Shown here: piece after piece, positions 1 through 17,848 of the stretch
Position numbering within the stretch: position 1 is the first letter of the stretch
Layout of the letters: each line of letters starts with the position of its first letter
Assembly (NCBI GenBank): GCA_902521155.1
Contig: CABYQR010000007.1
Location: forward strand, 1 to 49,099
DNA from: an uncultured Alphaproteobacteria bacterium
Lineage (GTDB): Bacteria; Pseudomonadota; Alphaproteobacteria; HIMB59
DNA length: 49,099 nucleotides
Direction: 5' to 3'
Notes under the pieces: model-generated
Database searches by the model: none
Seen by the model: the letters and a program-made list of their open reading frames with translations, nothing else
Told to the model about the DNA's origin: nothing
Translations under genes and position numbers: made by a program

Positions 1-3000
1 AAGTCATCAGCTGCTGATTGATTTGCAACATATGTATAAGAGCCATTGGCATTGAGGGTGAGTTGACCGTATGTACCTGTTAGAGCAGAGCCGACAGTTC
101 CTGCAGTGCCTGATCCCTCAGAGCTACCTAGTCTCACAGCTGTTACAGTTAAAGTCTCCACATCAACATCTGTGTCGTAAGAACTAGTATTGCTTGTATC
201 AATGACATCGCCTGAATGTTCAGCGTCTACGTTAATCAAACTAAAAGGTGAAGTTAATGTATATTCAAAAACAGATTTATTTGTTGAGCCCAAAACAAAT
301 AACTTAGTACCATCATGATTAAAGCTAATTGCTTTAGGGGAACTATCTTGAGAGCTAACATCTAAAGCTCCTACAAAAGAAGCCGTGGAAACATCAAATC
401 CTAAACTTAAATCATACTCATTAACGTCATTTCCTTGGTTTCCAACAACAAACATTTTCGTTCCATCACTATTAAAAGTTAGGCCATTTGGTTGAGCATC
501 TTGTGAGGATACAGAAAAACTATCAACGAAAGAGGCCGTAGAGACATCAAACCCCGTTGATAAGGTATATTCATTGATGTCATCACCAGCGTTTCCAGCT
601 ACAAACATCTTAGTGCCGTCTTGATTAAAGGCTAATCCTGTAGGGTTACTATCTTGGGAGCTAATGTCTTTACTATCAACAAAAGAGGCTGTTGAAACAT
701 CAAAAGCGGTAGAAAGGGTATATTCATTGACATCATCACCTTGCACCCCAACAACAAACATCTTGGTTCCATCACTATTGAAGGCAAGATCACGGGGGCC
801 TGTCTCTTGGGAGCTAATGTCTTTACTATCAACAAAAGAGGCGGTTGAAACATCAAACCCAGTGGAGAGAGTGTATTCATTGATATCATCTCCCGCTGAT
901 CCGATGACAAACATTTTTGTGCCATCATTATTGAATCTAAATCCTTGAGGATTATTTTCTTGTGAGCTGACAGAAAAACCATCAACAAATGAAGTAGCGC
1001 TTACAGCACTAGCATTATCTCCATCACTCACTGTCAAAGTGGCATCCTCTTCAACCGTTCCTGTGTCATTTCTGGCAACAGGGGCATCATTAGAACCATT
1101 AACCGTAATGGTTATCGTTGCTGTGTCGGTTGACGTACCATCAGAAACTGTATAAGTGAAAACATCTGTCGCTGACTCTGAGTCATCGAGAGCATCCGCT
1201 GCATCTTGATTAGCAGTGTAGGTATAGGAACCATCGGCACCAATGGTGAGAGTACCGTAGGTTCCTGTGACTGTAGTACCATTGCTTTCGTAGGTACTAC
1301 TTGAAGTGACTGAGGAGGAGGACCCGCCACTTGGTTGTATTGCTGTAACTGTTAAACTGGAACTGTCATCTGCATCAGTATCGTCATTGAGAACATCATC
1401 TTGAGAACCTGTCTTGGTAACGGTGGCTCCTTCACTGACTGTATCAGTGTCATCCACTGCTGCAGGATCATCATTTATACCTAAAACAGAAATTGTGATA
1501 TTGGCTGTAGTCGTAGCCGTTCCGTCAGAAAGTGTATAAACAAAAACATCATTGGCACTGTCACCAGCGTCTAAAGCATCCGCTGCAGTTTGATCCGCTA
1601 CATAAGTATAAGAACCATCAGCACCTATAGTCAGCGTACCATAAGTTCCGGTCACTGAAGTTCCGCTACTATTATAAGAACTGCCAGAAGAAACTGATGA
1701 ATTAGACCCACCATCTTTTTTGATTTGAGTAATTGTCAAAGATGCTGAGTCGTCAGCATCGCTGTCTGTATGAGAGCTAGAGCTAGTATCTATCACATCT
1801 CCTGAGTGTTCGCCCGTGGCATCATAAGAGCCAGAAAGATTTGCATTTGCGCCATTTATAACAGTTAAAGTACTGTCCTCTGCGATCACACCCACGTCGT
1901 TTTGGGCAACAGGAGTATCGTTAATACCATTAACCGTGATGGTTATGGTTGCCGTTGTAGTTGTTGTGCCATCAGAGACAGTATAGGTAAAGACATCGTT
2001 TGCTGAATCGCCAGCATCAAGGTCATCGGCGGCTGACTGGTCAGCGGTGTAGGTATAAGAACCATCCGCACCTATAATAAGAGTACCGTAGGTACCTGTG
2101 ACTGAAGTTCCGCTACTATCATAGGTGCTTCCTGAGGAAACATTAGAGGAAGAACCGCCACTAGGTTGAATTGCAGTAACTGTTAAAGCTGCTGAGTCAT
2201 CAGCATCTGTATCATCGTTGAGAACATCATCTTGGGAACCTGTTTTAGTTACAGTTGCATCTTCACTAACGCTATCGGTATCGTCTACTGCTGCGGGATC
2301 ATCATTAATACCTAAAACAGAAATTGTGATATTGGCAGTTGTAGTGGCAGTGCCATCAGAAAGAGTGTAAACAAAAACATCATCAGCGCTGTCACCGGCG
2401 TCTAGTGCATCGGCTGCTGTTTGATCTGCTACGTAAGTATAGGAGCCATCAGCCCCTATAGTCAGCGTACCATAAGTTCCGGTCACTGAAGTACCGCTAC
2501 TATTGTAGGAACTACCAGAAGAGATAGAAGAATTAGAACCTCCATCTTTTTTAATTTGAGTAATTGTCAAAGATGCTGAGTCGTCAGCATCACTGTCTGT
2601 ATGAGAGCTAGAGCTAGTGTCCATAACATCACCAGAATGTTCGCCAGTGGCATCATAAGAGCCTGAAACATTCGCATTGGCACCATTTGTAACCGTAAGC
2701 GTGCTGTCTTCAGCAATCACACCTACATCATTTTGAGCTACCGGTGTATCATTGACACCCGTAACTGTAATAGTAATTGTTGCTGTTGTGGTTGTTGTGC
2801 CATCAGAGACAGTATAAGTAAAGACATCGTCAACAGTATCGCCAGCGTCTAAATCATCAGCTGCGGATTGATCCGCGGTGTATGTATAAGAACCATCAGC
2901 ACCTATAATAAGAGTACCATAAGTTCCAGTAACACTGGTTCCGCTGCTATCATAGGTACTTCCAGAAGAAACATTAGAAGAGGATCCACCACTAGGTTGT

Positions 3001-6000
3001 ATTGCAGTGACTGTTAAAGTTGCTGAGTCATCAGGGTCGCTATCATCTGTAAGTACGTCGTCCTGGGCCCCTGTTTTGGTAACTGTGCCATCTTCATTAA
3101 CACTATCTGTATCGTTGACTGCTGTTGGGGCATCGTTAATACCCAAAACTGTAATTGTAAGAGTAGCAGTATCTGTAGCTGTTCCATCGGAGATGGTATA
3201 AATAAAGCTGTCAGTCACTGAGTCGCCAGCATCAAGATCATCAGCTGCAGATTGATCCGCCGCATAAGTATATGAACCGTCCGCACCAATAACAAGAGTA
3301 CCGTAAGTTCCTGTCACTGAAGTTCCGCTGCTGTTATAGGAACTACTAGAAGAAACCGTAGAATCTGAACCGCCACTTTTTCTGATTTGAGTAACAGTAA
3401 TGGAGTCCCCATCAGCGTCACTATCAGTATGACTACTAGAGCTCGTGTCCATGACATCACCAGAGTTTTCGCCGGTGGCATCATAAGAGCCGCTCAGTGT
3501 TGCATTGGCACTGTTTGCAACTGTTAAGGTGCTATCTTCAGCAATTACACCCACATCATTTTGCGCTACAGGTGCATTGTTAGAAGAGCCGTCATCTCCC
3601 AAAAGAGTAATTACAATATTAGCTGTCGTAGTTGCTGTGCCATCTGAAACTGTATAAGTAAATGTATCGGTGAGAGTCTCTCCTGCATCAAAACCTGAGA
3701 TATCAGATTGGGCTACATATTTATAAGAACCGTCCGCACCAATAGTTAAAGTACCGTAGGCACCAGTAACCGCGGTTCCACTACTGTTGTAAGAGCTGCT
3801 CGAAGAAACTGTTGAATTTGATCCACCATCTTTTTTAATATGAGTGATTGATAAGGTATTGCTAGTATCAGGATCAGTATCTGTGTGGGAACTTGAGCTT
3901 GTGTCGATCACATCACCAGAGTGTTCCCCTGTAGCATCATAACTCCCAGAAACATTAGCATTAGAGCTATTAGCAACTGTTAAAGTGCTACCTTCCATAA
4001 TCACACCAACATCATTTTGTGCGGTAGGACTATCGTTAGCACCCAAGATGGTAATTGTAATATTGGCTGTCGTTGTTTCCGTTCCGTCACTTAAGGTATA
4101 AACAAAGACATCGGTCGCTGTCTCTCCCGATGCAATTCCATCAGCCGCATCTGCAGTAGCAGCATAAGTATAGGAACCATCAGCACCAATAGTTAGGGTA
4201 CCATAAGTACCTGTGACTGAAGTTCCACTACTGTTATAAGAGCTACCCGAAGAAACTGATGAGTTAGAGCCACCATTCTTTTTAATTTGAGTTACGGTCA
4301 AAGAAGCCGACGCGTCAGCATCACTATCTTGATGTGAGCTACTACTAGTATTAATCACGTCACCAGAATTTTCACCCGTCGCATCGTAAGAGTCTCCTGT
4401 TAAAGTTGCATTTGCTCCATTTGTAACTGTAAGAGTGCTGTCTTCAGCAATCACACCTACATCATTTTGTGCAACAGGTGTGTCATTCACTCCAAAAACT
4501 TTTATTTCTAAAAGCGCTGTGTCTGTAAGGGCGCCATCTGAGACAGTATAATTAAAAGATTCTGTAACTTGATCACCTACGTCTAAAGCATCAGCAGCTG
4601 TTTGATTAGCTACATAAGTATAAGAACCGTTAGCATTGAGTGTCAATTGTCCGTAAGTTCCAGTCAACGCTTGTCCTACCGTACCCGCTGTACCTGAGCC
4701 CTCGGTTGATCCTAATCGAACAGCGCTAACAGTTAAGGTGTCTCCATCAACGTCTGTATCCGTGCCTGTATATGATGTATTGATAACATCACCAGAGTGT
4801 TCACCTGATGAATCATATCTTCCACTGACAGTTTGGTTATCCCCATCAGAAACAGTTAAGGTAGCATCTTCATTAATAGCACCATAATCATTAGCGGCCA
4901 CAGGGGCATCATTAGCACCCAAAATAGTGATCGTTAAATTTGCAGTTGTGGTCGCTGTGCCATCAGAAAGAGTATAAACAAAAACATCCGTAGCAGTTTC
5001 CCCTACATCTAATACATCAGCTGCATCTTGAGTAGCAGCGTAGGTATAAGATCCATCGGCACCAATAGTGAGTGTTCCGTAAGTTCCTGTAACTTGAGTA
5101 CCACTGCTATTGTAAGAACTTCCAATACCTACAGCAGAATTAGAACCACCACTTTTTTTGATTTGGGTAATCGATAAAGAAGCAGAGGCATCTGAGTCAG
5201 AGTCAGTATGAGAGGAAGAACTTGTATCAATTAAGTCACCAGAATTTTCTCCCGTGGCATCATAAGAACCACTCAACGTTGCGTTGGCACTATTTGCTAC
5301 TGTTAAGGTACCATCCTCAACTATGACTCCCACATCGTTTTGGGCGGTTGGAGTATCATTGATACCAATAACCGTAATAGTAATTACTGCTGTATCTGTA
5401 GCTGTGCCATCACTAACGGTGTAATTAAACGAGTCCGTAACTATATCTCCTGCATCTAAAGCATCTGCTGCTGCTTGATTGGCCACATAAGAATAGGATC
5501 CATTTGCGGCAATTGTTAATTGACCGTAAGTACCAGTCAAAGCTGAACCAATGGAACCAGATGTGCCTGAGCCTTCACTTGAACCTGTTCTAATTGCTGA
5601 AACTGTTAAAGAGGCACTATCGTCAGCATCACTATCTGAATTCGATGATGAACTAGTATGAAGAACATCTCCTGTATTTTCCCCGGTTATATCAACTAAA
5701 CTAAATGGACTTGAAAGGGAATATGAAAAAATTTTATTTGTACCTGTTTGACCTATAAAAGCTTTTGTTCCATCATTATTAAATACTATGTCATTTGCCT
5801 TTGTAACTGTGCCAGTCATATCAAATGCACCGTTATAAGATGCTGTAGATAAGTTAAAACCCGTACTAAGATCGTATTCGTGTATTTCATCACTATTTTG
5901 GCCTGTGATAAATAATTTTGTACCAGTTGAATTAAATGAAAGACCTCTTGGGGTAACTTCTTTGGAACTAACGTCTAAACTTCTACTTGTGTATGATATT

Positions 6001-9000
6001 GTCGTAGTGTCAAAAGCTGATGAAAGAGAATATTCATAAACAGTATTATTAGAGTCTCCAATTAAAAACATTTTGCTTCCATCAGCATTAAAAGCTATGC
6101 CTTTAGGACTTCCATCTTGACCACTAACAACAGTTGAGGAGGGTGATGATAGGGAAGATATATCGTAAGCAGTAGATAAAGAAAATTCATAAATCTTTTT
6201 GTTAGAGTTTTGATCAGAGTTTATATAAAGCTTGGTACCGTCACTGTTAAATAATAAACCACGTGGACTGGTTGTATGAGAACTAATGTCGTATGTGGTG
6301 CTTTGAGAGGCAGTTGTTATATCAAAAGCAGTACTTAAAGCATGTTTGGAGATAACAGCTGGTGTACTAGCATGGACAACAAACATTGTTGTACCATCAT
6401 TGTTAAATGTTAAAGAACGTATTGAGCCTTCATTAATTGCATAAGGTGAGCCATCATGCGAAGCACCTGCAACAATTGCAGCATTACCACCGTTTGAAAC
6501 AGTAAGCGTTGCATCTTCATTGACGGTGCCTGTATCGTTTTGAGCAACAGGGGCATCATTCGCACCAAGGATGGTAATGGTTAAAGTGGCAGTAGTGGTC
6601 GCTGTACCGTCAGAGAGAGTATAAACAAAAACATCAGTAGCGGTGTCTCCCGCGTCTAAAGGATCAGCTGCATCTTGAGTAGCAGCATAAGTATAAGATC
6701 CATCAGCACCAATAGTGAGAGTACCGTAGGTTCCCGTAACCTGCGTACCACTGCTATTATAAGAACTTCCCGATGCTACGGAAGAGTTAGAACCACCATT
6801 TTTTTTGATTTGGGTAATCGACAAAGAAGCAGAGGCATCTGAGTCAGAGTCACTGTGAGAGCTAGAACTGGTATCCATCAGGTCACCAGAATTTTCTCCC
6901 GTGGCATCATAAGAGCCATCAAGAGTTGCATTAGCACCGTTAGTCACTGTTAACGTGCCGTCTTCCACGATCACACCCACATCATTTTGAGCGGTTGGAG
7001 TGTCATTGATACCTAAAACTGTAATAGTAATCACCGCTGTATCTGTAGCCGTGCCATCACTAACGGTGTAATTAAAAGAATCCGTAACCGAGTCGCCTGC
7101 ATCTAAAGCATCAGCGGCTGTTTGATTAGCAACATACGTATAAGAACCATTTGAGTTAAGGGTTAACTGACCGTATGTACCTGTGAGAGCCGATCCCACA
7201 GAACCAGCCGTACCTGATCCCTCAGAAGAACCAAGACGAACAGCAGTCACTGTTAAAGTTTCAACGTCAACATCAGTATCACGAGTAGAGGTGTTACTTG
7301 AGTCAATAACATCACCCGTATGTTCACCGCTAACATCAACTAAACTAAAAGGAGTAGTAAGCGTGTATTCATCCACACTGTGTGAGCCAAGACTTCCAGA
7401 CGAGTCCGTAATAAACATTTTTGTTCCATCATTATTAAAGGTAATACCTGTAGGCTGAGTACCTTGAGAACTCACATCAAAATTACCCACAAAAGAAGCA
7501 GTGGAAACATCAAAGCCCGTAGAGAGCGTATATTCGTTAATATCATTTCCCGTATCGCCGGCAACAAACATTTTTTTTCCGTCTTTGCTAAATGCTAGGC
7601 CTTGAGATGAAGTATCTTGAGACAGGGTACTAAATTTACTATCATAGGAAGCGGTGGAAACATCAAAACCGGTAGATAGTGTGTATTCATTAACAGCATC
7701 ACCAGTACCATCACCAGAAACAAACATTTTTGTACCATCTGAATTGAATGCTAAACCATTTGGGTCATTTTCTTGGCTGGAAACACTAAACCTACTATCA
7801 TAGGATGCAGTAGAAACATCGAAGCCTGTAGTAAGATGGTATTCATTAATGTCTTGACCCGTCACCCCTACCACAAACATTTTTGTTCCATCATTGTTAA
7901 ATGCTAAGGCCCTTGGGTTGCGATCTTGAGTCCAAATACCAAAGCTACTATCATAGGAGGCGGTCGAAATATCATAGCCAGTAGATAGTGTGTACTCTAC
8001 AATTGCATCACCACCATCAGCGGCAACAAACATTTTTGTACCATCATTGTTAAATTTTACGTCTTGTGGCGATGTCATGCTTGCATTGCCTAAGCTATGA
8101 GTGCTAATACTATCAACATAAGAGGCGCCAGCTACAGTACTTGTGCCATCACCATCACTGACGGTGAGGGTGGCATCTTCATTGACTGTTCCTGTATCGT
8201 TTTGAGCAACAGGGCCATCATTAGCGCCCAGAACTGTAATCGTTATATTGGCTGTGGTGATGGCTGTACCATCGGAGAGCGTATAAACAAAAGTATCAGT
8301 CGCTGACTCTCCTGCATCCAGAGCATCAGTAGCATCAGTGGTTGCCGCATAAGTATAAGAACCATCCGCTCCAATAGTTATCGTACCATAAGTGCCCGTA
8401 ATAGAAGTTCCATTACTATTATAAGAGCTGCTCGAAGCAACCGTGGAATTAGAACCACCGCTTAATTTAATATGTGTAATGCTAAGAGATGAGGAAGCAT
8501 CCGCATCGGAATCTGTATGGGAACTAGAACTAGTATCAATGACATCACCGGAGTGTTCTCCTGTAGCATCGTAAGAGCCAGACACATTTGCGTTCGCACT
8601 ATTGGCAACTGTTAAAGTACTGCCTTCCGCAATCACACCTACATCATTTTGAGCGACGGGTGCATCGTTAATACCTAAGACTGTAATGGTGATAGTGCCT
8701 ACATCTGTAGCTGTACCATCACTGATTGTATAATTAAATGAATCGGTAACCGAGTCACCTGCATCCAGCGCATCGGCTGCTGTTTGATTAGCAACGTAAG
8801 AATAAGAACCATTCGCATTTAATGTGAGCTGACCATAGGTACCTGTTAAGGCTTGACCGACTGTACCCGCTGTGCCCGATCCTTCAGAAGAACCTAATCG
8901 AATGGCAGTGACGGTGAGTGTATCTCCATCTGCATCCGTATCATAATGTGTTGTCGAACTTGTATTGATCACATCACCGGAGTGTTCGCCCGTGGCATTG

Positions 9001-11687
9001 TAAGAGCCGCCAGTTTCATTTGCATTGGCACCATCACTAACAGACAGGGTGCTATCTTCTTCAATCACACCTACATCATTTCGTGCAACTGGCGCAGTAT
9101 TACCAACACCAATCACTGTAATTTTTAATTGTGCTGTATCTGTTGCTGACCCGTCAGAGACAGTGTAAGTAAAATAATCTATAACTTCATCTCCTGATCC
9201 CAATCCAGAGATACTACTGTTCGCTGCATAAGAATAAGAACCATTAGCATTAATTGTCAGAGCACCGTAAGTTCCAGTTAAAGAGGAACCCACACTACCT
9301 GAAGTGCCACTGCCACTTTCTTGTCCAGTTCTAATTCCTGTGATTGATAAGCTGGCGCTGGAATCTGCATCTGAGTCACTGTGAGAACTAGAGCTCGTAT
9401 CCATCACATCACCAGTGTGTTCACCAGTAGCATCATACGATCCCGAAACGTTAGCATTAGCGCCGTTTGAAACAGATAAAGTGCTACCTTCAGCAATTAA
9501 TCCTTCATCATTTTGAGCAACTGGGGTGTCATTAGCTCCTTTAACATAAATTCTTATCACCGCGGTATCGGTGTCTGTTCCATCGCTGACTGTGTAATTA
9601 AAATAATCAGAAACGGTGTCTCCCACATCCAACGCATCCGCTGCATCTTGATTTGCCACATAAGTATAAGAGCCATTAGCGTTGAGAGTGAGCTGACCAT
9701 AGGTACCTGTTAAAGCAGACCCAATTGATCCTGATGTACCTGATCCTTCAGTGGAACCTGTTCGAATAGCAGTGATCGTATGCGTAGGAGAGGCATCAGG
9801 ATCTGTATCGTTTGCAGAAATATCTCCTGAGTGTTCATCATGTGTATCGTAGGAACCAGAGAGGTTTTGACTTTCTCCGTTTGTGACAGTGAGCGTAGCA
9901 TCTTCAGTTACAACACCGTAGTCGTTCACTGCAGTGACATCATCGTTAATTCCTAATACAGCTATTCTGATAACAGCTGTATCTGTTAAAGTTCCATCGC
10001 TAACGGTGTAATTAAAATAATCATAAACAGTATCTCCTGCATCCAAAGCATCTGCAGCTGATTGGTTAGCTGCATAAGAATAAGAACCATTTGAGTTCAG
10101 GGTTAACTGACCATAGGTACCTGTGAGAGCGGATCCCACAGAACCAACAGTGCCTGATCCTTCGGTGCTTCCTTTTCTAACTGCTGTTATAGTAAGTGTG
10201 TCGCCATCGGCATCAGTGTCAGCATAACTAGAACTACTGGTATCAATAACATCACCTGTATGCTCACCACTTGCATCATAAGATCCGGATACATTAGCAT
10301 TTGCTCCATTTGAAACTGTGAGTGTACTGTCTTCATTAATCCAACCATAGTCGTTACGAGCAACTGGCGCATTAGTGCTAGCTTCGGTAAATACCCTGAT
10401 GATGTCACCATGCTGGTTTCCATTGTTAAAACCCACATATAAAGTGTTAGAGTCTGTGTCTACTCCGAACCAATCACTTTTATGACCACTAGGTTTGCTG
10501 TTAACTGTTATGTTGGTTCCCCAATTCCATTTTAATTTTTCTGTACTATAAGCATTTTGGCTACCGCTACCGTGCTGACTGTCGTTGTGGTATGTGGCTC
10601 CACTTTTACTGACACCTGAATAGGAAACGATATTGTTCATATTGAACCAAACACCTTTAATTTCGCCATCAAAAGTGACGGATCTAACATCATTTCTTCC
10701 AGAATTTTCTGTCGCGTAAACGTAGTAAACGTTCATCGGGGTAGAAGAGGCGTTTACTGTGGTTGTGTTAGACGAAATATTAGGACCTGCGGTTTGCACA
10801 CCACTATCATTTTCTTCAAAGCCTGTGGTGGTACTAGTATTATTGTAAAAGGTAAAAGATCCTGAAGTAACAGTTCTCTCATACGTAATTACAAAAGGCT
10901 TATTACCATCAGTATGATTGGAAGCTGAGGCAGCTGTTCCTGCATCGTTAGTACCTGCTCTTAAGTTAGTTCCCGTATTTTCAACAAAACCACTTAAAGA
11001 GGAAATACCTTCTTGAAGAAGAAAAGAATTATAATCGATAACCTCAATACCCTTAGTCTCCACAATTCCGTAATTGTGTTCGAGTTCCCAATCACCTCCT
11101 TGACCAGTGATGTCATCAGATGCTGCGATATCTGCTTGAGTGATGTTTCCAATTTGTTGAAGTAATAATTTTCCTTGCTCGCCTTGTGCTAAGTTACAAC
11201 CATAAAATAAAAGATCGCCATCTTGGGTTAAAGAATTTCCAATGGATTGTAAGGTGTTACTAAAAGAATTAATTGTGTCGGCATTCAAAATCGAATTACC
11301 CAATACTACTTGTCCCGCGCTAGCGTGGCCTATTATATGTACTGCATCAATACTACTTTGGTCTTGGAGAATATTTTGCATTTTCAAAAATCCATTATCG
11401 TTAGCATCAATAAGATAAATGGACTTTGATGAGTCGATAGCATTAACAATAGTTTGGTAATCATCAACGCCGCTATCGATAAAAACAATTTCTTTTCGTG
11501 AATTAGGATTTTCAATTACAGTATTTAAATCAGAAGAAAGAGCGCTACTATCACGAGAGGCAGATTGCTGATCGTCTAAAAGATCAATAGCTTCACTTGC
11601 AGCATAAACAGCGGCACCATCAAACATAATTCGTGGTTCCAACAATTGAATATGCAATTGTGAATATGTTTTATTATCTTTGCTCAA
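1..11687 (-). CDS. Giant LEPR-XLL / DUF4347 / VCBS-repeat surface or secreted protein (partial, C-terminus outside window)
   Basis: One frame stays open from a TTG at 11687-11685 to the left edge, at least 3895 codons. The start is chosen because AGGAGA lies seven bases upstream at 11695-11700, an in-frame stop sits at 11718-11720 and no ATG precedes the first motif. Residues 15-26 read LLEPRIMFDGAA, the LEPR-XLL signature found at the N-terminus of very large repetitive exoproteins. Residues about 65-205 match DUF4347 (HIIGHASAGQVVLGN, then FYGCNLA, then GGDWELE). From about residue 430 there is a long series of VCBS/cadherin-like units with recurring GTYGTLTIGADGSYTY, SDGTATTTANITI and EDSTLTVTNGANA motifs, rich in Asp, Ser and Thr. 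Three blocks of 51-residue propeller-like repeats interrupt them. The family is exported and usually linked to adhesion; type I secretion is my inference. There is no Sec signal peptide. Base composition is visibly less AT-rich than the rest of the window. The C-terminal secretion signal is not in view. Confidence 0.9.
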   Translation of the reverse strand, partial: MSKDNKTYSQLHIQLLEPRIMFDGAAVYAASEAIDLLDDQQSASRDSSALSSDLNTVIENPNSRKEIVFIDSGVDDYQTIVNAIDSSKSIYLIDANDNGFLKMQNILQDQSSIDAVHIIGHASAGQVVLGNSILNADTINSFSNTLQSIGNSLTQDGDLLFYGCNLAQGEQGKLLLQQIGNITQADIAASDDITGQGGDWELEHNYGIVETKGIEVIDYNSFLLQEGISSLSGFVENTGTNLRAGTNDAGTAASASNHTDGNKPFVITYERTVTSGSFTFYNNTSTTTGFEENDSGVQTAGPNISSNTTTVNASSTPMNVYYVYATENSGRNDVRSVTFDGEIKGVWFNMNNIVSYSGVSKSGATYHNDSQHGSGSQNAYSTEKLKWNWGTNITVNSKPSGHKSDWFGVDTDSNTLYVGFNNGNQHGDIIRVFTEASTNAPVARNDYGWINEDSTLTVSNGANANVSGSYDASGEHTGDVIDTSSSSYADTDADGDTLTITAVRKGSTEGSGTVGSVGSALTGTYGQLTLNSNGSYSYAANQSAADALDAGDTVYDYFNYTVSDGTLTDTAVIRIAVLGINDDVTAVNDYGVVTEDATLTVTNGESQNLSGSYDTHDEHSGDISANDTDPDASPTHTITAIRTGSTEGSGTSGSIGSALTGTYGQLTLNANGSYTYVANQDAADALDVGDTVSDYFNYTVSDGTDTDTAVIRIYVKGANDTPVAQNDEGLIAEGSTLSVSNGANANVSGSYDATGEHTGDVMDTSSSSHSDSDADSSASLSITGIRTGQESGSGTSGSVGSSLTGTYGALTINANGSYSYAANSSISGLGSGDEVIDYFTYTVSDGSATDTAQLKITVIGVGNTAPVARNDVGVIEEDSTLSVSDGANANETGGSYNATGEHSGDVINTSSTTHYDTDADGDTLTVTAIRLGSSEGSGTAGTVGQALTGTYGQLTLNANGSYSYVANQTAADALDAGDSVTDSFNYTISDGTATDVGTITITVLGINDAPVAQNDVGVIAEGSTLTVANSANANVSGSYDATGEHSGDVIDTSSSSHTDSDADASSSLSITHIKLSGGSNSTVASSSSYNSNGTSITGTYGTITIGADGSYTYAATTDATDALDAGESATDTFVYTLSDGTAITTANITITVLGANDGPVAQNDTGTVNEDATLTVSDGDGTSTVAGASYVDSISTHSLGNASMTSPQDVKFNNDGTKMFVAADGGDAIVEYTLSTGYDISTASYDSSFGIWTQDRNPRALAFNNDGTKMFVVGVTGQDINEYHLTTGFDVSTASYDSRFSVSSQENDPNGLAFNSDGTKMFVSGDGTGDAVNEYTLSTGFDVSTASYDSKFSTLSQDTSSQGLAFSKDGKKMFVAGDTGNDINEYTLSTGFDVSTASFVGNFDVSSQGTQPTGITFNNDGTKMFITDSSGSLGSHSVDEYTLTTPFSLVDVSGEHTGDVIDSSNTSTRDTDVDVETLTVTAVRLGSSEGSGTAGSVGSALTGTYGQLTLNSNGSYTYVANQTAADALDAGDSVTDSFNYTVSDGTATDTAVITITVLGINDTPTAQNDVGVIVEDGTLTVTNGANATLDGSYDATGENSGDLMDTSSSSHSDSDSDASASLSITQIKKNGGSNSSVASGSSYNSSGTQVTGTYGTLTIGADGSYTYAATQDAADPLDAGDTATDVFVYTLSDGTATTTATLTITILGANDAPVAQNDTGTVNEDATLTVSNGGNAAIVAGASHDGSPYAINEGSIRSLTFNNDGTTMFVVHASTPAVISKHALSTAFDITTASQSTTYDISSHTTSPRGLLFNSDGTKLYINSDQNSNKKIYEFSLSTAYDISSLSSPSSTVVSGQDGSPKGIAFNADGSKMFLIGDSNNTVYEYSLSSAFDTTTISYTSRSLDVSSKEVTPRGLSFNSTGTKLFITGQNSDEIHEYDLSTGFNLSTASYNGAFDMTGTVTKANDIVFNNDGTKAFIGQTGTNKIFSYSLSSPFSLVDITGENTGDVLHTSSSSNSDSDADDSASLTVSAIRTGSSEGSGTSGSIGSALTGTYGQLTIAANGSYSYVANQAAADALDAGDIVTDSFNYTVSDGTATDTAVITITVIGINDTPTAQNDVGVIVEDGTLTVANSANATLSGSYDATGENSGDLIDTSSSSHTDSDSDASASLSITQIKKSGGSNSAVGIGSSYNSSGTQVTGTYGTLTIGADGSYTYAATQDAADVLDVGETATDVFVYTLSDGTATTTANLTITILGANDAPVAANDYGAINEDATLTVSDGDNQTVSGRYDSSGEHSGDVINTSYTGTDTDVDGDTLTVSAVRLGSTEGSGTAGTVGQALTGTYGQLTLNANGSYTYVANQTAADALDVGDQVTESFNYTVSDGALTDTALLEIKVFGVNDTPVAQNDVGVIAEDSTLTVTNGANATLTGDSYDATGENSGDVINTSSSSHQDSDADASASLTVTQIKKNGGSNSSVSSGSSYNSSGTSVTGTYGTLTIGADGSYTYAATADAADGIASGETATDVFVYTLSDGTETTTANITITILGANDSPTAQNDVGVIMEGSTLTVANSSNANVSGSYDATGEHSGDVIDTSSSSHTDTDPDTSNTLSITHIKKDGGSNSTVSSSSSYNSSGTAVTGAYGTLTIGADGSYKYVAQSDISGFDAGETLTDTFTYTVSDGTATTTANIVITLLGDDGSSNNAPVAQNDVGVIAEDSTLTVANSANATLSGSYDATGENSGDVMDTSSSSHTDSDADGDSITVTQIRKSGGSDSTVSSSSSYNSSGTSVTGTYGTLVIGADGSYTYAADQSAADDLDAGDSVTDSFIYTISDGTATDTATLTITVLGINDAPTAVNDTDSVNEDGTVTKTGAQDDVLTDDSDPDDSATLTVTAIQPSGGSSSNVSSGSTYDSSGTSVTGTYGTLIIGADGSYTYTADQSAADDLDAGDTVDDVFTYTVSDGTTTTTATITITVTGVNDTPVAQNDVGVIAEDSTLTVTNGANANVSGSYDATGEHSGDVMDTSSSSHTDSDADDSASLTITQIKKDGGSNSSISSGSSYNSSGTSVTGTYGTLTIGADGSYTYVADQTAADALDAGDSADDVFVYTLSDGTATTTANITISVLGINDDPAAVDDTDSVSEDATVTKTGSQDDVLNDDTDADDSAALTVTAIQPSGGSSSNVSSGSTYDSSGTSVTGTYGTLIIGADGSYTYTADQSAADDLDAGDSANDVFTYTVSDGTTTTTATITITVNGINDTPVAQNDVGVIAEDSTLTVINGANANLSGSYDATGEHSGDVIDTSSSSHTDSDADDSASLTITQIKKDGGSNSSVSSGSSYNSSGTSVTGTYGTLTIGADGSYTYVADQTAADALDAGDSANDVFVYTLSDGTATTTANITISVLGINDDPAAVDDTDTVSEGATVTKTGSQDDVLNDDTDADDSSSLTVTAIQPSGGSSSSVTSSSTYESNGTTVTGTYGTLTIGADGSYTYTANQDAADALDDSESATDVFTYTVSDGTSTDTATITITVNGSNDAPVARNDTGTVEEDATLTVSDGDNASAVSATSFVDGFSVSSQENNPQGFRFNNDGTKMFVIGSAGDDINEYTLSTGFDVSTASFVDSKDISSQETGPRDLAFNSDGTKMFVVGVQGDDVNEYTLSTAFDVSTASFVDSKDISSQDSNPTGLAFNQDGTKMFVAGNAGDDINEYTLSTGFDVSTASFVDSFSVSSQDAQPNGLTFNSDGTKMFVVGNQGNDVNEYDLSLGFDVSTASFVGALDVSSQDSSPKAISFNHDGTKLFVLGSTNKSVFEYTLTSPFSLINVDAEHSGDVIDTSNTSSYDTDVDVETLTVTAVRLGSSEGSGTAGTVGSALTGTYGQLTLNANGSYTYVANQSAADD
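241..1000 (-). repeat. Propeller-like repeat block A, about five 153-bp units
   Basis: Inside the giant gene, units recur every 153 bases: the anchor encoding EYTLST is found near 568, 721 and 874, with a more diverged copy near 415 and an end copy near 262. Each unit encodes 51 residues of the form GLAFNSDGTKMFVVG, then DDINEYTLSTGFDVSTASFV, then a DSKDISSQ-like linker. The pattern resembles beta-propeller blades of the YVTN/lactonase-like type. Five units are fewer than a usual six- to eight-blade propeller. Confidence 0.8.
1101..3590 (-). repeat. 831-bp tandem super-repeat made of two alternating VCBS types
   Basis: Two VCBS unit types alternate. Type B (linker QPSGGSS) has the same anchor at 1101, 1932 and about 2763. 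Type A (linker KKDGG or RKSGG) has its anchor near 1481, 2312 and 3143. Both series step by exactly 831 bases, which is 277 codons. The copies at 1481 and 2312 are nearly identical over long runs, whereas other units of the protein are more diverged. This indicates recent tandem duplication of a two-domain module with the frame kept. Confidence 0.8.
5700..6480 (-). repeat. Propeller-like repeat block B, about five diverged units
   Basis: Inside the giant gene, about five repeats of roughly 50 residues follow the pattern FNNDGTKAF or FNADGSKMF, then a YSLSS/YDLST strand, then an FNLSTASYNG-like linker. They are more diverged than the units near 241-1000 and 7321-8110, so this looks like the older block. 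The block is flanked on both sides by VCBS units. Confidence 0.65.
7321..8110 (-). repeat. Propeller-like repeat block C, about five units
   Basis: Inside the giant gene, anchors encoding the EYTLST-type strand occur near 7364, 7530, 7683, 7842 and 7992, mostly spaced 150-166 bases apart. The encoded units again read FNNDGTKMFVVG and GFDVSTASYDS. The block lies between two VCBS arrays, in the same setting as the blocks at 241-1000 and 5700-6480. Confidence 0.75.
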
Positions 11688-11841: not shown

Positions 11842-14283
11842 ATGAGACTAAAAAAGATATTTATATTTTTAGGATTGGCAGCAACTTTGGCCGCTTGCTC
11901 TAGTAGAGCACCAGATCCCTTATTAAAAGAAGATGTGCAAGCATCTTCTCAAGAAGACTATGAATATTTAAAAGAGACATCTGCAAACGCCCCTTTAGAA
12001 ATTGATTTGTATCAAGCCATGGCAATTGCCATTAAAAATAATCGAGACCTAAGAATTAATATTATGGACTCTGCTCTTAAACAGGGACAAATGGATGTGG
12101 TTAAGTTTGATATGCTACCTAAACTCTCTGCTAATGCTGGTTATAAAGTTTTAGAAAAACATCCTGCCTCTACTAGTGTCAGTATGGTTACAGAAAAAGA
12201 CAGTTCGGGAAATGATATCACTGGTGCAGAGAATAAAGCTGCAAATGCTTTAGGGGATAGTCCTTCTTATACTATCTCTCAGGAGACACCTTCTCGAACA
12301 ACAGACATAGGTTTCACTTGGAATGCTCTTGATTTTGGCTTGTCTTATATTAGAGCAGGGCAGCAAGCTAATCGTTATTTAATTTCAAAAGAACTAGAGC
12401 GCAAAGCTATTCATAATCTAACCAAAGAAGTTATTTATGCTTATTGGAAAACACTCTCTGCTGATGAGCTCTTAGCAGAAATTAATCCTTTAATGGATCG
12501 TGTGGACAAGGCCTTAGAAGATTATGAATACATTGAAGAGCTTTTAATTACCTCACCGATGGATGCTCTATTGTATCAAAAAGAATTACTCGACGTGTCA
12601 CAAATTTTAAATACTCAAAGAAGAGCGCTCATGGATTCTAGAACTCAACTTGCAACACTCATGGGTTTAATGCCCGGTCAAGAGTATGTTTTAGTTAAAA
12701 CAGAAAAGCCATTGAGTGAATTAGTAATGGACTTAGAGGAACAAGAAGAGGCAGCATTATTTTCTAGACCAGAATTACTAGAGATACGTTACCAAGAAAA
12801 AGTAACAGCAAAAGAAGCACGTGCTTCCATGCTCTCTCTTTTGCCATCACTTCAGTTTAATGCTACATGGACTTATGATTCCAACAAATACCTCTTAAAC
12901 AAAAATAATGCTGAATATGGTGCTGTTTTTGGTGCTAATTTACTCAATATCTTTCAAGCAGGAAACATCAATGACGTTAACAAAATCAATGAAAAGATTG
13001 TAGAAGAGCAAAGACTGGCTCTTTCTATGGCAGTTTTATCTCAGGTTCATATTGCGAATATCAACTACTCACAAAGTTTAAGGGAATACAGCAATGCGAA
13101 GCATTACTTAAGCGTAGCACAAAGAATTAATGAGCTAATAGCTAATGCCCAAAAAATTTCAAGGTTTGGAGAATTAGAGGTTATTAGAGAGGAGGCTAGC
13201 TTATTGGTCTCTCGTTTAAGAAATGATATTGCCTTTGCGGAGTTACAGTACAGCTTGGGTACTCTATATTCCTCCGTGGGAATGAATTTTGTGCCAGATG
13301 ATCTAGCACAAATTTCTGATGAAGACCTTGCGGTGGCCTTAAAAGACAACCTTAATAGATGGACAAAAACATATAATGTTTTTGTCAACAGACCTATTAA
13401 CGAACAAAATCCTATTTTAGAGGTAACTGATAAAATTACAGTTGGAAATGTTGGTAGTTATTTTGACTTTGTAGAATTTAAATTTGAATTTGATGAAAAT
13501 ACTTTTTACTTAGAGGGAAGTGGAAAAACACGTCTAAGTGCAAAGCTAGCAAGTGGTGATGCTCTGCCACCTTGGCTTGTATTTCTTCCCTCCCAACATA
13601 CTTTTGCGGGTAGTCCTCTTGAAGAAACAGGTACGTTAGATATTACTGTTGAAGCATCCAACGATGTGACATTTGTTTCTGATACATTTACTTTGTCTTG
13701 GGGCAATCCTCAGCTCTTAACTCAGTTGGAACCTGAAGATGAAAATACAAACACGATAGATAAAAAAATAATTATTAATCAAGATCAACTTAATGCCTTA
13801 AATGAAGCACTTGATAAAAGATTTTCAGAAATTGTTGAACTAGAAGAGACTGTCAATGAAGAACAATTAGATGCCTTGATAGCAGCTCTAAATTCCAAAG
13901 AGGTTAATGATAGTATTGAAATTATTGAAGAAATATCTGATTCATCATTTGAAATTAAAACTAAGCCGAAGCCCAATAAAACAGTTTTAGTGGGAGCACT
14001 CCAAGATAGCTTAAATGAAAAAATTAAATCCTTAACATCCTATAGTCCCACTCAGTCAGCCTATATTCAAATAGGAGCCTTTAGAAAAGAGCATGTCTCA
14101 CAGTCTGTTGCTGACGACGTTGCCACTAAATTGGGAACCTCTGTTGAAGTCATTCCGACATTAGTCTCTGATCCTGTAATGTATCGCATATTAGTAGGTC
14201 CGGAACATAAAGATGAAATCATTGATGTTATTGCAGATTTGATGGAGTTGGGTATCTCTGATTACTTCTTAACTCACGGTTAA
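11842..14283 (+). CDS. TolC-type outer-membrane factor lipoprotein fused to CADG/He_PIG and SPOR domains
   Basis: The 813-residue protein begins with a lipoprotein signal peptide (lipobox LAAC, Cys 19). Residues about 50-515 have the helical layout of TolC/NodT outer-membrane efflux proteins: the two-fold repeated alternation of long helices and strand-like stretches, with PKLSANAGY and LPSLQFNATW at the strand positions. Residues about 522-620 match a cadherin-like CADG/He_PIG domain (ALPPWLVF, then HTFAGSP, then GTLDITVEAS, then SDTFTLSW). An acidic, low-complexity linker follows to about 735. Residues about 738-813 match SPOR (AYIQIGAFRKEH, then MYRILVGP), which binds denuded glycan strands of peptidoglycan. 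Usual TolC-type proteins are 420-500 residues and lack both extra domains. It is transcribed divergently from the giant VCBS gene, so I infer it is that protein's outer-membrane exit. The ATG is preceded by GGGAGA. The domain calls are made by eye. Confidence 0.85.
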   Translation: MRLKKIFIFLGLAATLAACSSRAPDPLLKEDVQASSQEDYEYLKETSANAPLEIDLYQAMAIAIKNNRDLRINIMDSALKQGQMDVVKFDMLPKLSANAGYKVLEKHPASTSVSMVTEKDSSGNDITGAENKAANALGDSPSYTISQETPSRTTDIGFTWNALDFGLSYIRAGQQANRYLISKELERKAIHNLTKEVIYAYWKTLSADELLAEINPLMDRVDKALEDYEYIEELLITSPMDALLYQKELLDVSQILNTQRRALMDSRTQLATLMGLMPGQEYVLVKTEKPLSELVMDLEEQEEAALFSRPELLEIRYQEKVTAKEARASMLSLLPSLQFNATWTYDSNKYLLNKNNAEYGAVFGANLLNIFQAGNINDVNKINEKIVEEQRLALSMAVLSQVHIANINYSQSLREYSNAKHYLSVAQRINELIANAQKISRFGELEVIREEASLLVSRLRNDIAFAELQYSLGTLYSSVGMNFVPDDLAQISDEDLAVALKDNLNRWTKTYNVFVNRPINEQNPILEVTDKITVGNVGSYFDFVEFKFEFDENTFYLEGSGKTRLSAKLASGDALPPWLVFLPSQHTFAGSPLEETGTLDITVEASNDVTFVSDTFTLSWGNPQLLTQLEPEDENTNTIDKKIIINQDQLNALNEALDKRFSEIVELEETVNEEQLDALIAALNSKEVNDSIEIIEEISDSSFEIKTKPKPNKTVLVGALQDSLNEKIKSLTSYSPTQSAYIQIGAFRKEHVSQSVADDVATKLGTSVEVIPTLVSDPVMYRILVGPEHKDEIIDVIADLMELGISDYFLTHG

Positions 14284-14350: not shown

Positions 14351-14461
14351 TAATTTGTCTATTTAATTTAATTGATAGATATAGGTCGGTCACTAGCCCA
14401 ACTAAAAAAAAGGCCATAAAGAAAGGAACGTTTAATCTCAGATTTTTGGGTGATAGTTTTT

Positions 14462-14866
14462 ATGTCTGAAAATAAATACAAATTTATTGCTAAAATTATT
14501 ATTGGATTTCTAGCTTTATGGGCTTTGATAATTCCCATACTTCAAGTATTTGGAACAACAATTGTTTTTCCTCTTAGAATTTCAGAGTCAGGAGAAATAC
14601 CCTATTATCGACTACTAGGGGTAAGAACTGCTGTTTGTTTAACATTTGTTTATTTTGCATTTAGGTTTCTATTCCTTGAATACTCTAAATTTTACCCTAT
14701 ACAGTTTTTAGATATTTTTTTAAAAATACTATTTATTAGTAATTTATTAGTTTGGTCTGCTCATGGTGCGGAAATTGGCGAGTATGTTTTACTTATTGTC
14801 TTTCTTCCTTTCTTAATAATAACACACATTATTTCGGGAAAAAAATTTAGAAAATATTTTAATTAG
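14462..14866 (+). CDS. Small four-helix membrane protein, function unknown
   Basis: The 134-residue protein has four hydrophobic segments (about residues 10-30, 50-70, 80-100 and 105-125) and a basic C-terminus (GKKFRKYFN). I chose the ATG at 14462; a GTG at 14450 in the same frame would add four residues, and neither has a clear ribosome binding site. The motif SAHGAEIGEY precedes the last helix. I do not recognise the family. It stands alone between the TolC-type gene and the convergent argG, so context gives no strong hint of function. Confidence 0.6.
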   Translation: MSENKYKFIAKIIIGFLALWALIIPILQVFGTTIVFPLRISESGEIPYYRLLGVRTAVCLTFVYFAFRFLFLEYSKFYPIQFLDIFLKILFISNLLVWSAHGAEIGEYVLLIVFLPFLIITHIISGKKFRKYFN

Positions 14867-16634: not shown

Positions 16635-17231
16635 ATGGCCAAAGTAAAAAATCCATTTATAGAAGCTCTCGCTAAAGTTGCCGAAAGCCAAGATATTAGC
16701 AGTTTCAAAAAAATATTTGATTATTTCAGCCCAAGACTGAAATCTTTTTTGATGAGATCTGGTGCCGATGAGGCTATTGCAGAAGAGATTATTCAAGAAA
16801 CCATGACCATTATTTGGACAAAAGCTGATTATTATGACCCAAAAGTGGCCTCACCTAGCACGTGGATATACACAATTGCTAGAAATAAGAAAATAGATAT
16901 TTTAAGAAAGTCTCGAAAAGCCATTTTAGAGGACATAGACACTGCAATCCTACCTCCCGTTGAGTCTAAAGCTGATGAAAACATCGAGCATGGTCAAAAG
17001 TTTGAGATGATAGCACAATATCTAGATGATCTTCCTGAAGACCAACTCAATTTATTGAAAATGAACTTCTTTGAAGAAAAATCGCACGGTGAAATTTCTG
17101 AAATTACCAAAATCCCCCTAGGAACCGTTAAGTCGAGAATTCGATTAGCTTTGGAGAAAATCCGCGGCAAATTGGAACAAGATGGCACAATGGCTAATCT
17201 AAATGAAGGCAATAACAGTAATATTAATTAA
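16635..17231 (+). CDS. ECF sigma factor, RpoE/ChrR-type
   Basis: The 198-residue protein has sigma region 2 (about residues 22-95, with FDYFSPRLKSFLMRSG, EEIIQETM and TWIYTIARNKKID) and sigma region 4 (about 125-185, with LPEDQLNLL, HGEISEITKIPLGTVKSRI). It is followed after five bases by a ChrR-like cupin anti-sigma gene, the arrangement of the group that controls the singlet-oxygen and photo-oxidative stress response in alphaproteobacteria. That response is established for Rhodobacter and inferred here. The ATG lies close to an AT-rich region shared with the divergent ialB-like gene, where autoregulation is possible but no clear ECF promoter is visible. Confidence 0.92.
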   Translation: MAKVKNPFIEALAKVAESQDISSFKKIFDYFSPRLKSFLMRSGADEAIAEEIIQETMTIIWTKADYYDPKVASPSTWIYTIARNKKIDILRKSRKAILEDIDTAILPPVESKADENIEHGQKFEMIAQYLDDLPEDQLNLLKMNFFEEKSHGEISEITKIPLGTVKSRIRLALEKIRGKLEQDGTMANLNEGNNSNIN

Positions 17232-17236
17232 ATAAA

Positions 17237-17848
17237 ATGACCTTTGAAATTTTAACAAACCCAACCAATTCGCAGGCTAGCCTGCTATTTCAGCAATGTT
17301 TATCGGAAGTCGTTCCTGAAAATAAGCTTATTCAAAGAGCAAAAGATGAGGTCTCTGGATATTTTTTAGAAAGAATTGAAACAACCGATGTGTCTGATGA
17401 TCTTTGGATGAAGGTAATCAATAGTAATGAGTCAAAGAAAAAATCTCCTTTTGTCTTAGATGTCGATCCTTTTCTAAGTCAACTACCAAGATCTCTTCAA
17501 GCTCATTTGGTAGATAAAAAGATTAATTGGAAATCTTTTAAAGATGTCAAAATCGCTTCTATTCTTCCTAAAGAAAAAAATGAAAAGCTAGAATTAATTC
17601 ACGTGATGCCAGGAGCTAAAATTCCTCAACACACCCATGAAGGAAACGAAAGCTTTTTAGTTTTGCATGGTTCTTATAGTGACGAATATGGAAGCTACAA
17701 ACAAGGAACCGTTCAAGTAAGAAGTGACGACCATGACCATACTCCCATCGGAAATGCTCAAACTGGTTGTATCGGCCTAGCTTACACACACGGAAAAATA
17801 AAATTTTCTGGAAAATTTGGTAAACTTTTAAATCTAATCGCTAATTAA
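17237..17848 (+). CDS. ChrR-like cupin anti-sigma factor lacking the N-terminal zinc motif
   Basis: The 203-residue protein has a C-terminal cupin with its metal ligands in place: H132, H134 and E138 in IPQHTHEGNES, plus H166 or H168 in DDHDH. The position and fold match ChrR, the anti-sigma factor of the upstream ECF sigma. Canonical ChrR has an N-terminal zinc-binding anti-sigma domain with a HxxxCxxC motif and an upstream His. Here the first 89 residues contain no His and only one Cys (C21), so that site cannot form. The segment at 14-70 is still predicted helical, consistent with a zinc-free anti-sigma domain. Alternatively the protein no longer holds the sigma factor. The end faces the DUF3429 gene seven bases away. 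Confidence 0.85.
   Translation: MTFEILTNPTNSQASLLFQQCLSEVVPENKLIQRAKDEVSGYFLERIETTDVSDDLWMKVINSNESKKKSPFVLDVDPFLSQLPRSLQAHLVDKKINWKSFKDVKIASILPKEKNEKLELIHVMPGAKIPQHTHEGNESFLVLHGSYSDEYGSYKQGTVQVRSDDHDHTPIGNAQTGCIGLAYTHGKIKFSGKFGKLLNLIAN

What the first reader, a model, noticed from the sequence alone, without database searches (positions are those of the whole stretch)
11842..14283. TolC-type channel fused to a cadherin-like and a SPOR domain
The reading frame shows a lipoprotein TolC/NodT body followed by a CADG/He_PIG domain (about residues 522-620), an acidic linker and a SPOR domain (about 738-813). TolC-type proteins normally carry neither. SPOR domains bind denuded glycan at division sites; CADG domains occur in calcium-dependent adhesins. 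I infer a channel tethered to peptidoglycan, possibly placed at the septum, that holds or guides the giant repeat protein encoded next to it.
Basis: partly seen in the sequence, partly recalled or inferred. Interest (0 to 1): 0.8.

Follow-up and report, generated by a model that had tools for sequence, protein, structure and literature searches.

The report
Wall-anchored export channel for giant proteins
A marine bacterium makes an outer-membrane export tube whose tail carries a module that should grip the cell wall; relatives across many bacteria repeatedly bolted different wall-gripping modules onto the same tube, which sits next to genes for giant surface proteins and a little-known export machine.

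Summary
ORF 11842-14283 (813 aa) is a TolC/OEP lipoprotein with a He_PIG/CADG domain and a SPOR domain, each above Pfam's cut-off. It is conserved in this marine alphaproteobacterial genus, divergent from a giant LEPR-XLL/DUF4347/cadherin-repeat gene. The full locus, read in sister genomes, adds three adaptor genes: a HlyD protein, a soluble-domain-plus-HlyD protein and an M50-peptidase-HlyD fusion, and no type I ABC transporter. The same set, with the same OEP subfamily, is widespread in Pseudomonadota, including Azospirillum and Escherichia coli plasmids. Only this order has the He_PIG-SPOR tail. But of 120 OEPs of the subfamily sampled across the phylum, 68 have long tails, and Pfam finds SPOR (17), SH3_3 (6), OmpA (5), AMIN (1) or NTF2-like Cds6_C (11) in them; 30 control OEPs have none. 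So wall-binding tails were gained repeatedly on this channel. Best reading: the channel is the exit pore for the giant protein and is fixed to peptidoglycan, probably to bear load or hold the export complex in place. The septum and the role of the CADG domain remain untested. Novelty lies in the recurrent anchoring and the ABC-less locus; no paper describing either was found in the open-access library.

The parts
11842..14283 (+). TolC-family (OEP) lipoprotein fused to He_PIG and SPOR, 813 aa
   Evidence: conserved full length in the genus
11887..11898 (+). lipobox LAAC, acylated Cys19 (inferred lipid anchor in the outer membrane)
   Evidence: sequence; Cys19 invariant in 24 homologues; LPAM_1 18.1 bits, under cut-off
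12010..13371 (+). OEP channel body, residues about 57-510 (two OEP repeats)
   Evidence: Pfam PF02321; profile nearest SilC, OprJ and OprM in PDB
13477..13698 (+). He_PIG/CADG-type domain, residues 546-619
   Evidence: Pfam PF05345, 27.9 bits; kept in the whole order including the SPOR-less sister family
13705..14055 (+). acidic, largely helical linker, residues 622-738
   Evidence: sequence; alignment
14056..14268 (+). SPOR domain, residues 739-809; Q743, F747 and R782 match RlpA Q270, F274 and R309
   Evidence: Pfam PF05036 25.1 bits; model; residue mapping by eye from the text of PMC6895207
3..11687 (-). giant LEPR-motif/DUF4347/cadherin-VCBS repeat protein, probable cargo; runs off the contig start
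   Evidence: full length 2274-4804 aa in sister genomes
11052..11489 (-). DUF4347 domain of the giant protein
   Evidence: Pfam PF14252, 155.7 bits
11592..11657 (-). LEPR motif (LLEPRIMFDGAA) at the giant's N-terminus
   Evidence: sequence; NF012209 14.0 bits, under cut-off 17

Best explanation
The protein is the outer-membrane exit channel of a dedicated export locus for the neighbouring giant surface protein, and its C-terminal SPOR domain ties the trimeric channel to the peptidoglycan. Shown: domain composition, conservation, linkage to the giant gene, co-occurrence with the M50-HlyD gene, and recurrent wall-binding tails on the same channel subfamily. Inferred: the OEP trimer is lipid-anchored by Cys19; its C-terminus emerges in the periplasm; three He_PIG-linker-SPOR arms per trimer reach the wall; the three HlyD-type adaptors, one carrying an intramembrane M50 peptidase, link it to the inner membrane; the giant protein leaves through the channel and stays on the surface. 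The anchor would keep the pore from being pulled out when a very long adhesin is under load, or keep the complex at one place in the wall. The He_PIG domain is probably a folded spacer, or a dock for the giant's own C-terminal CADG-like domains.
For: Domains above Pfam cut-offs. Full architecture at 74-83% identity across the genus, 52% in G024. Divergent pairing with the giant gene in every locus read. Complete locus giant - HlyD - soluble-HlyD - M50-HlyD in G017, G020, G008 and G018. OEP and M50 co-occur in 32 of 162 genomes of the order (5 OEP only, 3 M50 only; Fisher p 4e-25); the 99%-complete genome G030 has neither. The genome has a second, ordinary TolC of about 428 aa, so this copy is specialised. 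Same gene set in alphaproteobacterial genomes (M50 protein in 24 of 385; loci) and on named plasmids of Azospirillum argentinense, Kosakonia cowanii and E. coli. Tails of 120 subfamily OEPs: SPOR 17, SH3_3 6, OmpA 5, AMIN 1, Cds6_C 11 (single cases); controls 0 of 30. Tree: OmpA, SH3, AMIN and several SPOR groups lie in separate places; SPOR needs at least 14 changes by Fitch parsimony. SPOR residues that bind denuded glycan (Q270, F274, R309 of RlpA, PMC6895207) correspond to invariant Q743, F747 and R782. Working precedent: the wall-binding TpgA reinforces the giant adhesin AtaA (PMC13082670).
Against: No experiment. About half of the subfamily OEPs sampled have short or unidentifiable tails, so anchoring is not essential to the machine. 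The sister family f2 kept He_PIG but lost (or never had) SPOR. Export of the giant by this channel is inferred from linkage only. The full-length model was useless (mean pLDDT 34.6), so trimer geometry and reach are untested.
Confidence: 0.7

Rival explanations
1. The SPOR domain is a septal address: it places the export channel at the division site so that giant protein is laid down at new poles.
For: SPOR domains bind denuded glycan enriched at septa (PMC6895207); glycan-contact residues are kept.
Against: OmpA, SH3 and AMIN tails take the same position in relatives; these are general wall-binding modules (established knowledge; AMIN can itself be septal). No localisation data.
Confidence: 0.15
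2. The He_PIG domain is the working part: it docks the giant's C-terminal CADG-like domains and retains the finished adhesin in the channel, as the N-terminal plug of LapA-type adhesins does in LapE. SPOR is secondary.
For: The giants carry He_PIG/CADG-like domains near the C-terminus; in L113, L115 and L116 these match the OEP's He_PIG weakly; He_PIG outlives SPOR in family f2.
Against: No match between the OEP domain and the giants of its own order at E 10; the similarity is the generic CADG pattern; He_PIG is absent from all other OEPs of the subfamily examined.
Confidence: 0.1
3. The channel serves another substrate (small molecules or peptides) and the giant gene is only a neighbour; the tail is a chance fusion without function.
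For: OEP proteins serve many pumps; an adaptor of this locus matches the RND_mfp model (TIGR01730, 112 bits).
Against: Linkage to giant DUF4347 genes holds across classes and on plasmids; no RND or MFS pump seen at the complete loci of the order; the tail is conserved at 74-83% identity; tails recur independently.
Confidence: 0.05

Closest known systems
LapE/LapBC-LapA type I secretion of large adhesins (also BapA, SiiE)
   Same: TolC-family exit channel beside a giant repeat adhesin, with a HlyD-type adaptor
   Different: No ABC transporter at this locus; three HlyD-type proteins, one fused to an M50 peptidase; wall-binding tail on the channel; DUF4347/LEPR N-terminus on the cargo
AtaA-TpgA (trimeric autotransporter with wall-binding periplasmic partner)
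   Same: A giant surface protein whose outer-membrane pore is reinforced by a peptidoglycan-binding module (PMC13082670)
   Different: There the module is a separate protein on a type V barrel; here it is fused to a TolC-type channel
FtsN, DedD, DamX and RlpA SPOR proteins
   Same: SPOR fold and glycan-contact residues; DedD is the only PDB hit of the profile (E 0.31)
   Different: Those are division proteins or a lytic transglycosylase, not channels
CusC/SilC/OprM lipoprotein channels
   Same: N-terminal lipobox and OEP body (profile hits to SilC and OprM)
   Different: Those end shortly after the second repeat; this one adds about 300 residues

Membership tests
TolC/outer-membrane factor (Pfam OEP) | two OEP repeats | tested here: met
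   67.1 bits, two stretches
TolC/outer-membrane factor (Pfam OEP) | trimeric beta-barrel plus alpha-barrel structure | not testable with these tools
   monomer model failed, pLDDT 34.6
NodT-type lipoprotein channel | lipobox with acylated Cys | tested here: inconclusive
   LAAC19 present and Cys invariant, LPAM_1 score just under cut-off; TIGR01845 matched far below its cut-off
SPOR domain | Pfam SPOR above curated cut-off | tested here: met
   25.1 against 21 bits; 21.8 bits in two homologues
SPOR domain | Gln and Arg glycan-contact residues | tested here: met
   Q743 and R782 invariant, mapped by eye to RlpA Q270/R309 described in PMC6895207
SPOR domain | binding of denuded glycan | not testable with these tools
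   needs a binding assay
He_PIG/CADG domain | Pfam He_PIG above curated cut-off | tested here: met
   27.9 against 24 bits; close homologues 22.7 and 19.5, under cut-off
He_PIG/CADG domain | calcium-dependent adhesion | not tested
Type I secretion system | ABC exporter encoded with the channel and adaptor | tested here: not met
   no ABC exporter in the complete loci; in 57 M50 loci only three short ABC-ATPase-like ORFs of 254-379 aa by motif. One encoded elsewhere is not excluded
Type I secretion system | HlyD-type I adaptor (TIGR01843) above cut-off | tested here: not met
   41.7 and 23.0 bits against 208.65
LapA-type retained adhesin | N-terminal retention plug cleaved by LapG-type protease | not tested
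   the giant N-terminus is DUF4347 with a LEPR motif; LapG/LapD were not searched

The most novel reading that the evidence does not exclude
The locus is an undescribed class of exporter for giant proteins without its own ABC transporter: an M50 intramembrane peptidase fused to HlyD, two further HlyD-type adaptors and a TolC-type channel that is repeatedly anchored to the cell wall, with the LEPR/DUF4347 N-terminus of the cargo as its recognition signal.
Probability: 0.35. Interest if true: 0.85.

Novelty: new variant of a known kind. Interest (0 to 1): 0.63.

Why it matters
How cells hold very long surface proteins in a fluid outer membrane is poorly understood. Repeated fusion of SPOR, OmpA, SH3, AMIN and NTF2-like tails to one channel subfamily is strong comparative evidence that the export pore itself is anchored to the wall, and it makes that idea directly testable. 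The conserved locus without an ABC transporter, found from open-ocean Alphaproteobacteria to Escherichia coli plasmids, may be a separate route for secreting some of the largest bacterial proteins.

Tried and rejected
Full-length AlphaFold model from 6 sequences: mean pLDDT 34.6, not used. PDB sequence search with the full protein: no hit. Origin of the OEP's He_PIG from the giant of the same order: no match at E 10. PqqD/RRE-like N-terminus of the M50 protein: looks so by eye, but only 2 of 28 members hit PF05402, at best E 0.02, and there was no credible PDB hit, so not claimed. Genome-wide search for a type I ABC exporter (TIGR03375): hits in all genomes with or without the locus, none over the cut-off, uninformative. 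HMM of the subfamily body against control OEPs: too specific to place tail boundaries, replaced by a Pfam scan. VIA-align of the SPOR model: many ferredoxin-like and ACT folds at Z 6-8, not discriminating, and SPOR chains are not among the 50 rows shown. Literature: LEPR-XLL appears in 2 papers and DUF4347 in 4; the one opened for each term mentions it only in passing. Nothing was found on SPOR together with outer-membrane efflux proteins or on an M50-HlyD exporter; the held first 300,000 characters of a large review of tripartite pumps and T1SS (PMC8277102) do not mention SPOR-domain, OmpA or wall-binding tails on channels. IncHI RSP Ig-like protein considered and set aside: exported by a type IV system. 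genome.fa was not available.

Full report
OBSERVATION. The ORF at 11842-14283 on the plus strand encodes 813 aa. Pfam reports two OEP repeats (67.1 bits), He_PIG at 546-619 (27.9 bits, cut-off 24) and SPOR at 739-809 (25.1 bits, cut-off 21). The N-terminus ends in a lipobox LAAC19; the cysteine is invariant in 24 aligned homologues. The architecture is not an accident of one assembly: over 20 genomes of the same genus carry it over its full length at 74-83% identity, and G024 at 52%. Named records of close relatives are marine single-cell genomes labelled uncultured Alphaproteobacteria (that they are marine is my reading of the AG- isolate names).

SECOND CHECK OF THE SPOR DOMAIN. The last 84 residues fold as beta-alpha-beta-beta-alpha (mean pLDDT 73.5). 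FtsN (1uta) and RlpA (6i09) SPOR structures are ranks 3 and 7 in Foldseek, but at E 0.017-0.03 and among other ferredoxin-like folds, so this is only consistent. The profile's only PDB sequence hit at E <= 1 is the DedD SPOR domain (E 0.31). The text of PMC6895207 names Q270, F274 and R309 of RlpA (Q251 and R285 of FtsN) as glycan contacts; by motif alignment they correspond to Q743, F747 and R782 here, invariant in the seven sequences. R311 of RlpA corresponds to Leu784, so one arginine of the basic cluster is missing.

NEIGHBOURHOOD. The gene is divergent from a giant gene (3-11687, minus) with a LEPR motif, DUF4347 and more than 20 Cadherin_4/VCBS repeats. The contig starts inside that gene. 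In four sister genomes the locus is complete: giant protein of 2274, 4514, 4515 or 4804 aa, then a 248-aa HlyD protein, a 444-aa protein with a soluble N-terminal part and a HlyD part, and a 700-aa protein with M50 peptidase and HlyD domains. In the window's own genome the end of contig C16 holds the last 494 codons of the M50 gene, which is the far side of the same locus by inference. A second TolC of about 428 aa exists elsewhere in the genome.

CO-OCCURRENCE. In 162 genomes of the order, 37 have the OEP (leaving out one remnant, G029) and 35 the M50 protein; 32 have both (Fisher p 4e-25). The genomes are incomplete, which can explain most of the mismatches. The 99%-complete genome G030 lacks both. 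G029 keeps only a broken SPOR end, and G529 has six stops in the OEP, so the locus is lost now and then.

THE TAIL IN THE ORDER. Residues 510-813 match essentially only genomes of this order. Family f2 has OEP plus He_PIG and stops there, 660 aa. In the body tree f2's protein lies inside the SPOR-bearing group, with L025 outside, so loss of SPOR in f2 fits better than late gain, though transfer is possible.

THE SUBFAMILY BEYOND THE ORDER. The OEP body is found in 82 of 398 sampled Pseudomonadota genomes, and the M50-HlyD protein in 24 of 385 alphaproteobacterial genomes. I fetched all 120 OEP places; 91 have at least one further gene of the locus within the stretch held. Of 120 OEPs, 68 have tails of 75 aa or more. 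Pfam finds SPOR in 17, Cds6_C (NTF2-like) in 11, SH3_3 in 6, OmpA in 5 and AMIN in 1 of these 68, with single examples; outside this set, L116 also has SPOR. As a control, 30 ordinary OEP proteins, one from each of 30 genomes nearly all of which carry the subfamily, showed no such domain; 29 of 120 against 0 of 30 gives Fisher p 7e-4 if the wall-binding classes do not overlap. That p value ignores relatedness. On a tree of the bodies the SPOR, OmpA, SH3 and AMIN tails lie in separate parts; Fitch counts are 14 (SPOR), 2 (OmpA), 4 (SH3) and 1 (AMIN) changes, gains and losses together. Hence repeated gain of wall-binding tails, not one old fusion. Caveat: the label set was made with my own profiles seeded from Pfam hits, plus a few by eye, and the sample leans to some families.

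NAMED EXAMPLES. Azospirillum argentinense plasmid p2, Kosakonia cowanii plasmid unnamed1 and E. coli pABWA45_1 hold giant - TolC - adaptor - HlyD - M50-HlyD in a row (M50 confirmed by Pfam in the E. coli protein). Their giant proteins begin with LEPRFMFDAAGA, LEPRMLFDGAIA and LESRQLFDGAAL near the N-terminus. The E. coli channel gene is in 23 of 5426 complete genomes, 20 times on plasmids. Their TolC proteins have no Pfam hit beyond OEP.

NO ABC TRANSPORTER AT THE LOCUS. In 57 loci with the M50 protein, a motif scan found only three short ABC-ATPase-like ORFs of 254-379 aa and no exporter-sized one. One encoded elsewhere is not excluded. The first adaptor matches the RND_mfp model above its cut-off (112 against 94.9 bits), and the type I HlyD model only far below its own (41.7 against 208.65). 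I therefore do not file the locus as a type I secretion system.

MECHANISM. From established knowledge of TolC/OprM topology, N- and C-termini of the channel lie in the periplasm, so the tail can reach the wall. Three SPOR domains per trimer would give a multivalent anchor. A precedent is AtaA, whose pore is bound by the wall-binding protein TpgA; simulation there gives about twofold extraction resistance, and the authors note that periplasmic binding alone, without wall coupling, already strengthens the anchor (PMC13082670). The same caution applies here: load bearing is an inference. A septal address is possible but does not explain the other tail types. The He_PIG domain is unexplained; the giants bear CADG-like domains at their C-termini, but no specific match was found.

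VERDICT. Real, conserved, and part of a wider pattern. The fusion itself is a new variant of a TolC-family channel. The wider locus may be a new kind of exporter, which needs experiments.

Noticed in passing
L032, L034, L036, L040; L314, L315, L316: Five-gene locus giant - OEP - HlyD - soluble-HlyD - M50-HlyD without an ABC transporter, from marine Alphaproteobacteria to E. coli plasmids (23 of 5426 complete E. coli genomes).
   Followed up: partly
L034:16915-17214 and 27 relatives (A6): The M50 protein has a conserved N-terminal domain (LPPLRxDLxLxPGPxxxDGxPTWTLHDPxRNRFFRIG...) that resembles PqqD/RRE by eye; Pfam support is marginal.
   Followed up: partly
L128; L029; L118: Decayed copies: G529 OEP with six stops, G029 with a SPOR remnant only, G356 with OEP and M50 broken into several frames.
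   Followed up: no
window 16635-17848: ECF sigma factor followed by a ChrR-type cupin anti-sigma factor, a few genes on from the channel gene.
   Followed up: no
window 14450-14866: 138-aa membrane-like ORF without Pfam hit between the channel gene and argG.
   Followed up: no
L160, L161, L167 and others: Cds6_C NTF2-like domains, sometimes together with SPOR, on OEP tails of the same subfamily.
   Followed up: partly
L032, L034, L036, L040: The giant protein varies from 2274 to 4804 aa between close relatives, apparently by repeat number, with a nearly constant C-terminus (HENYGDKxxKVSG).
   Followed up: no
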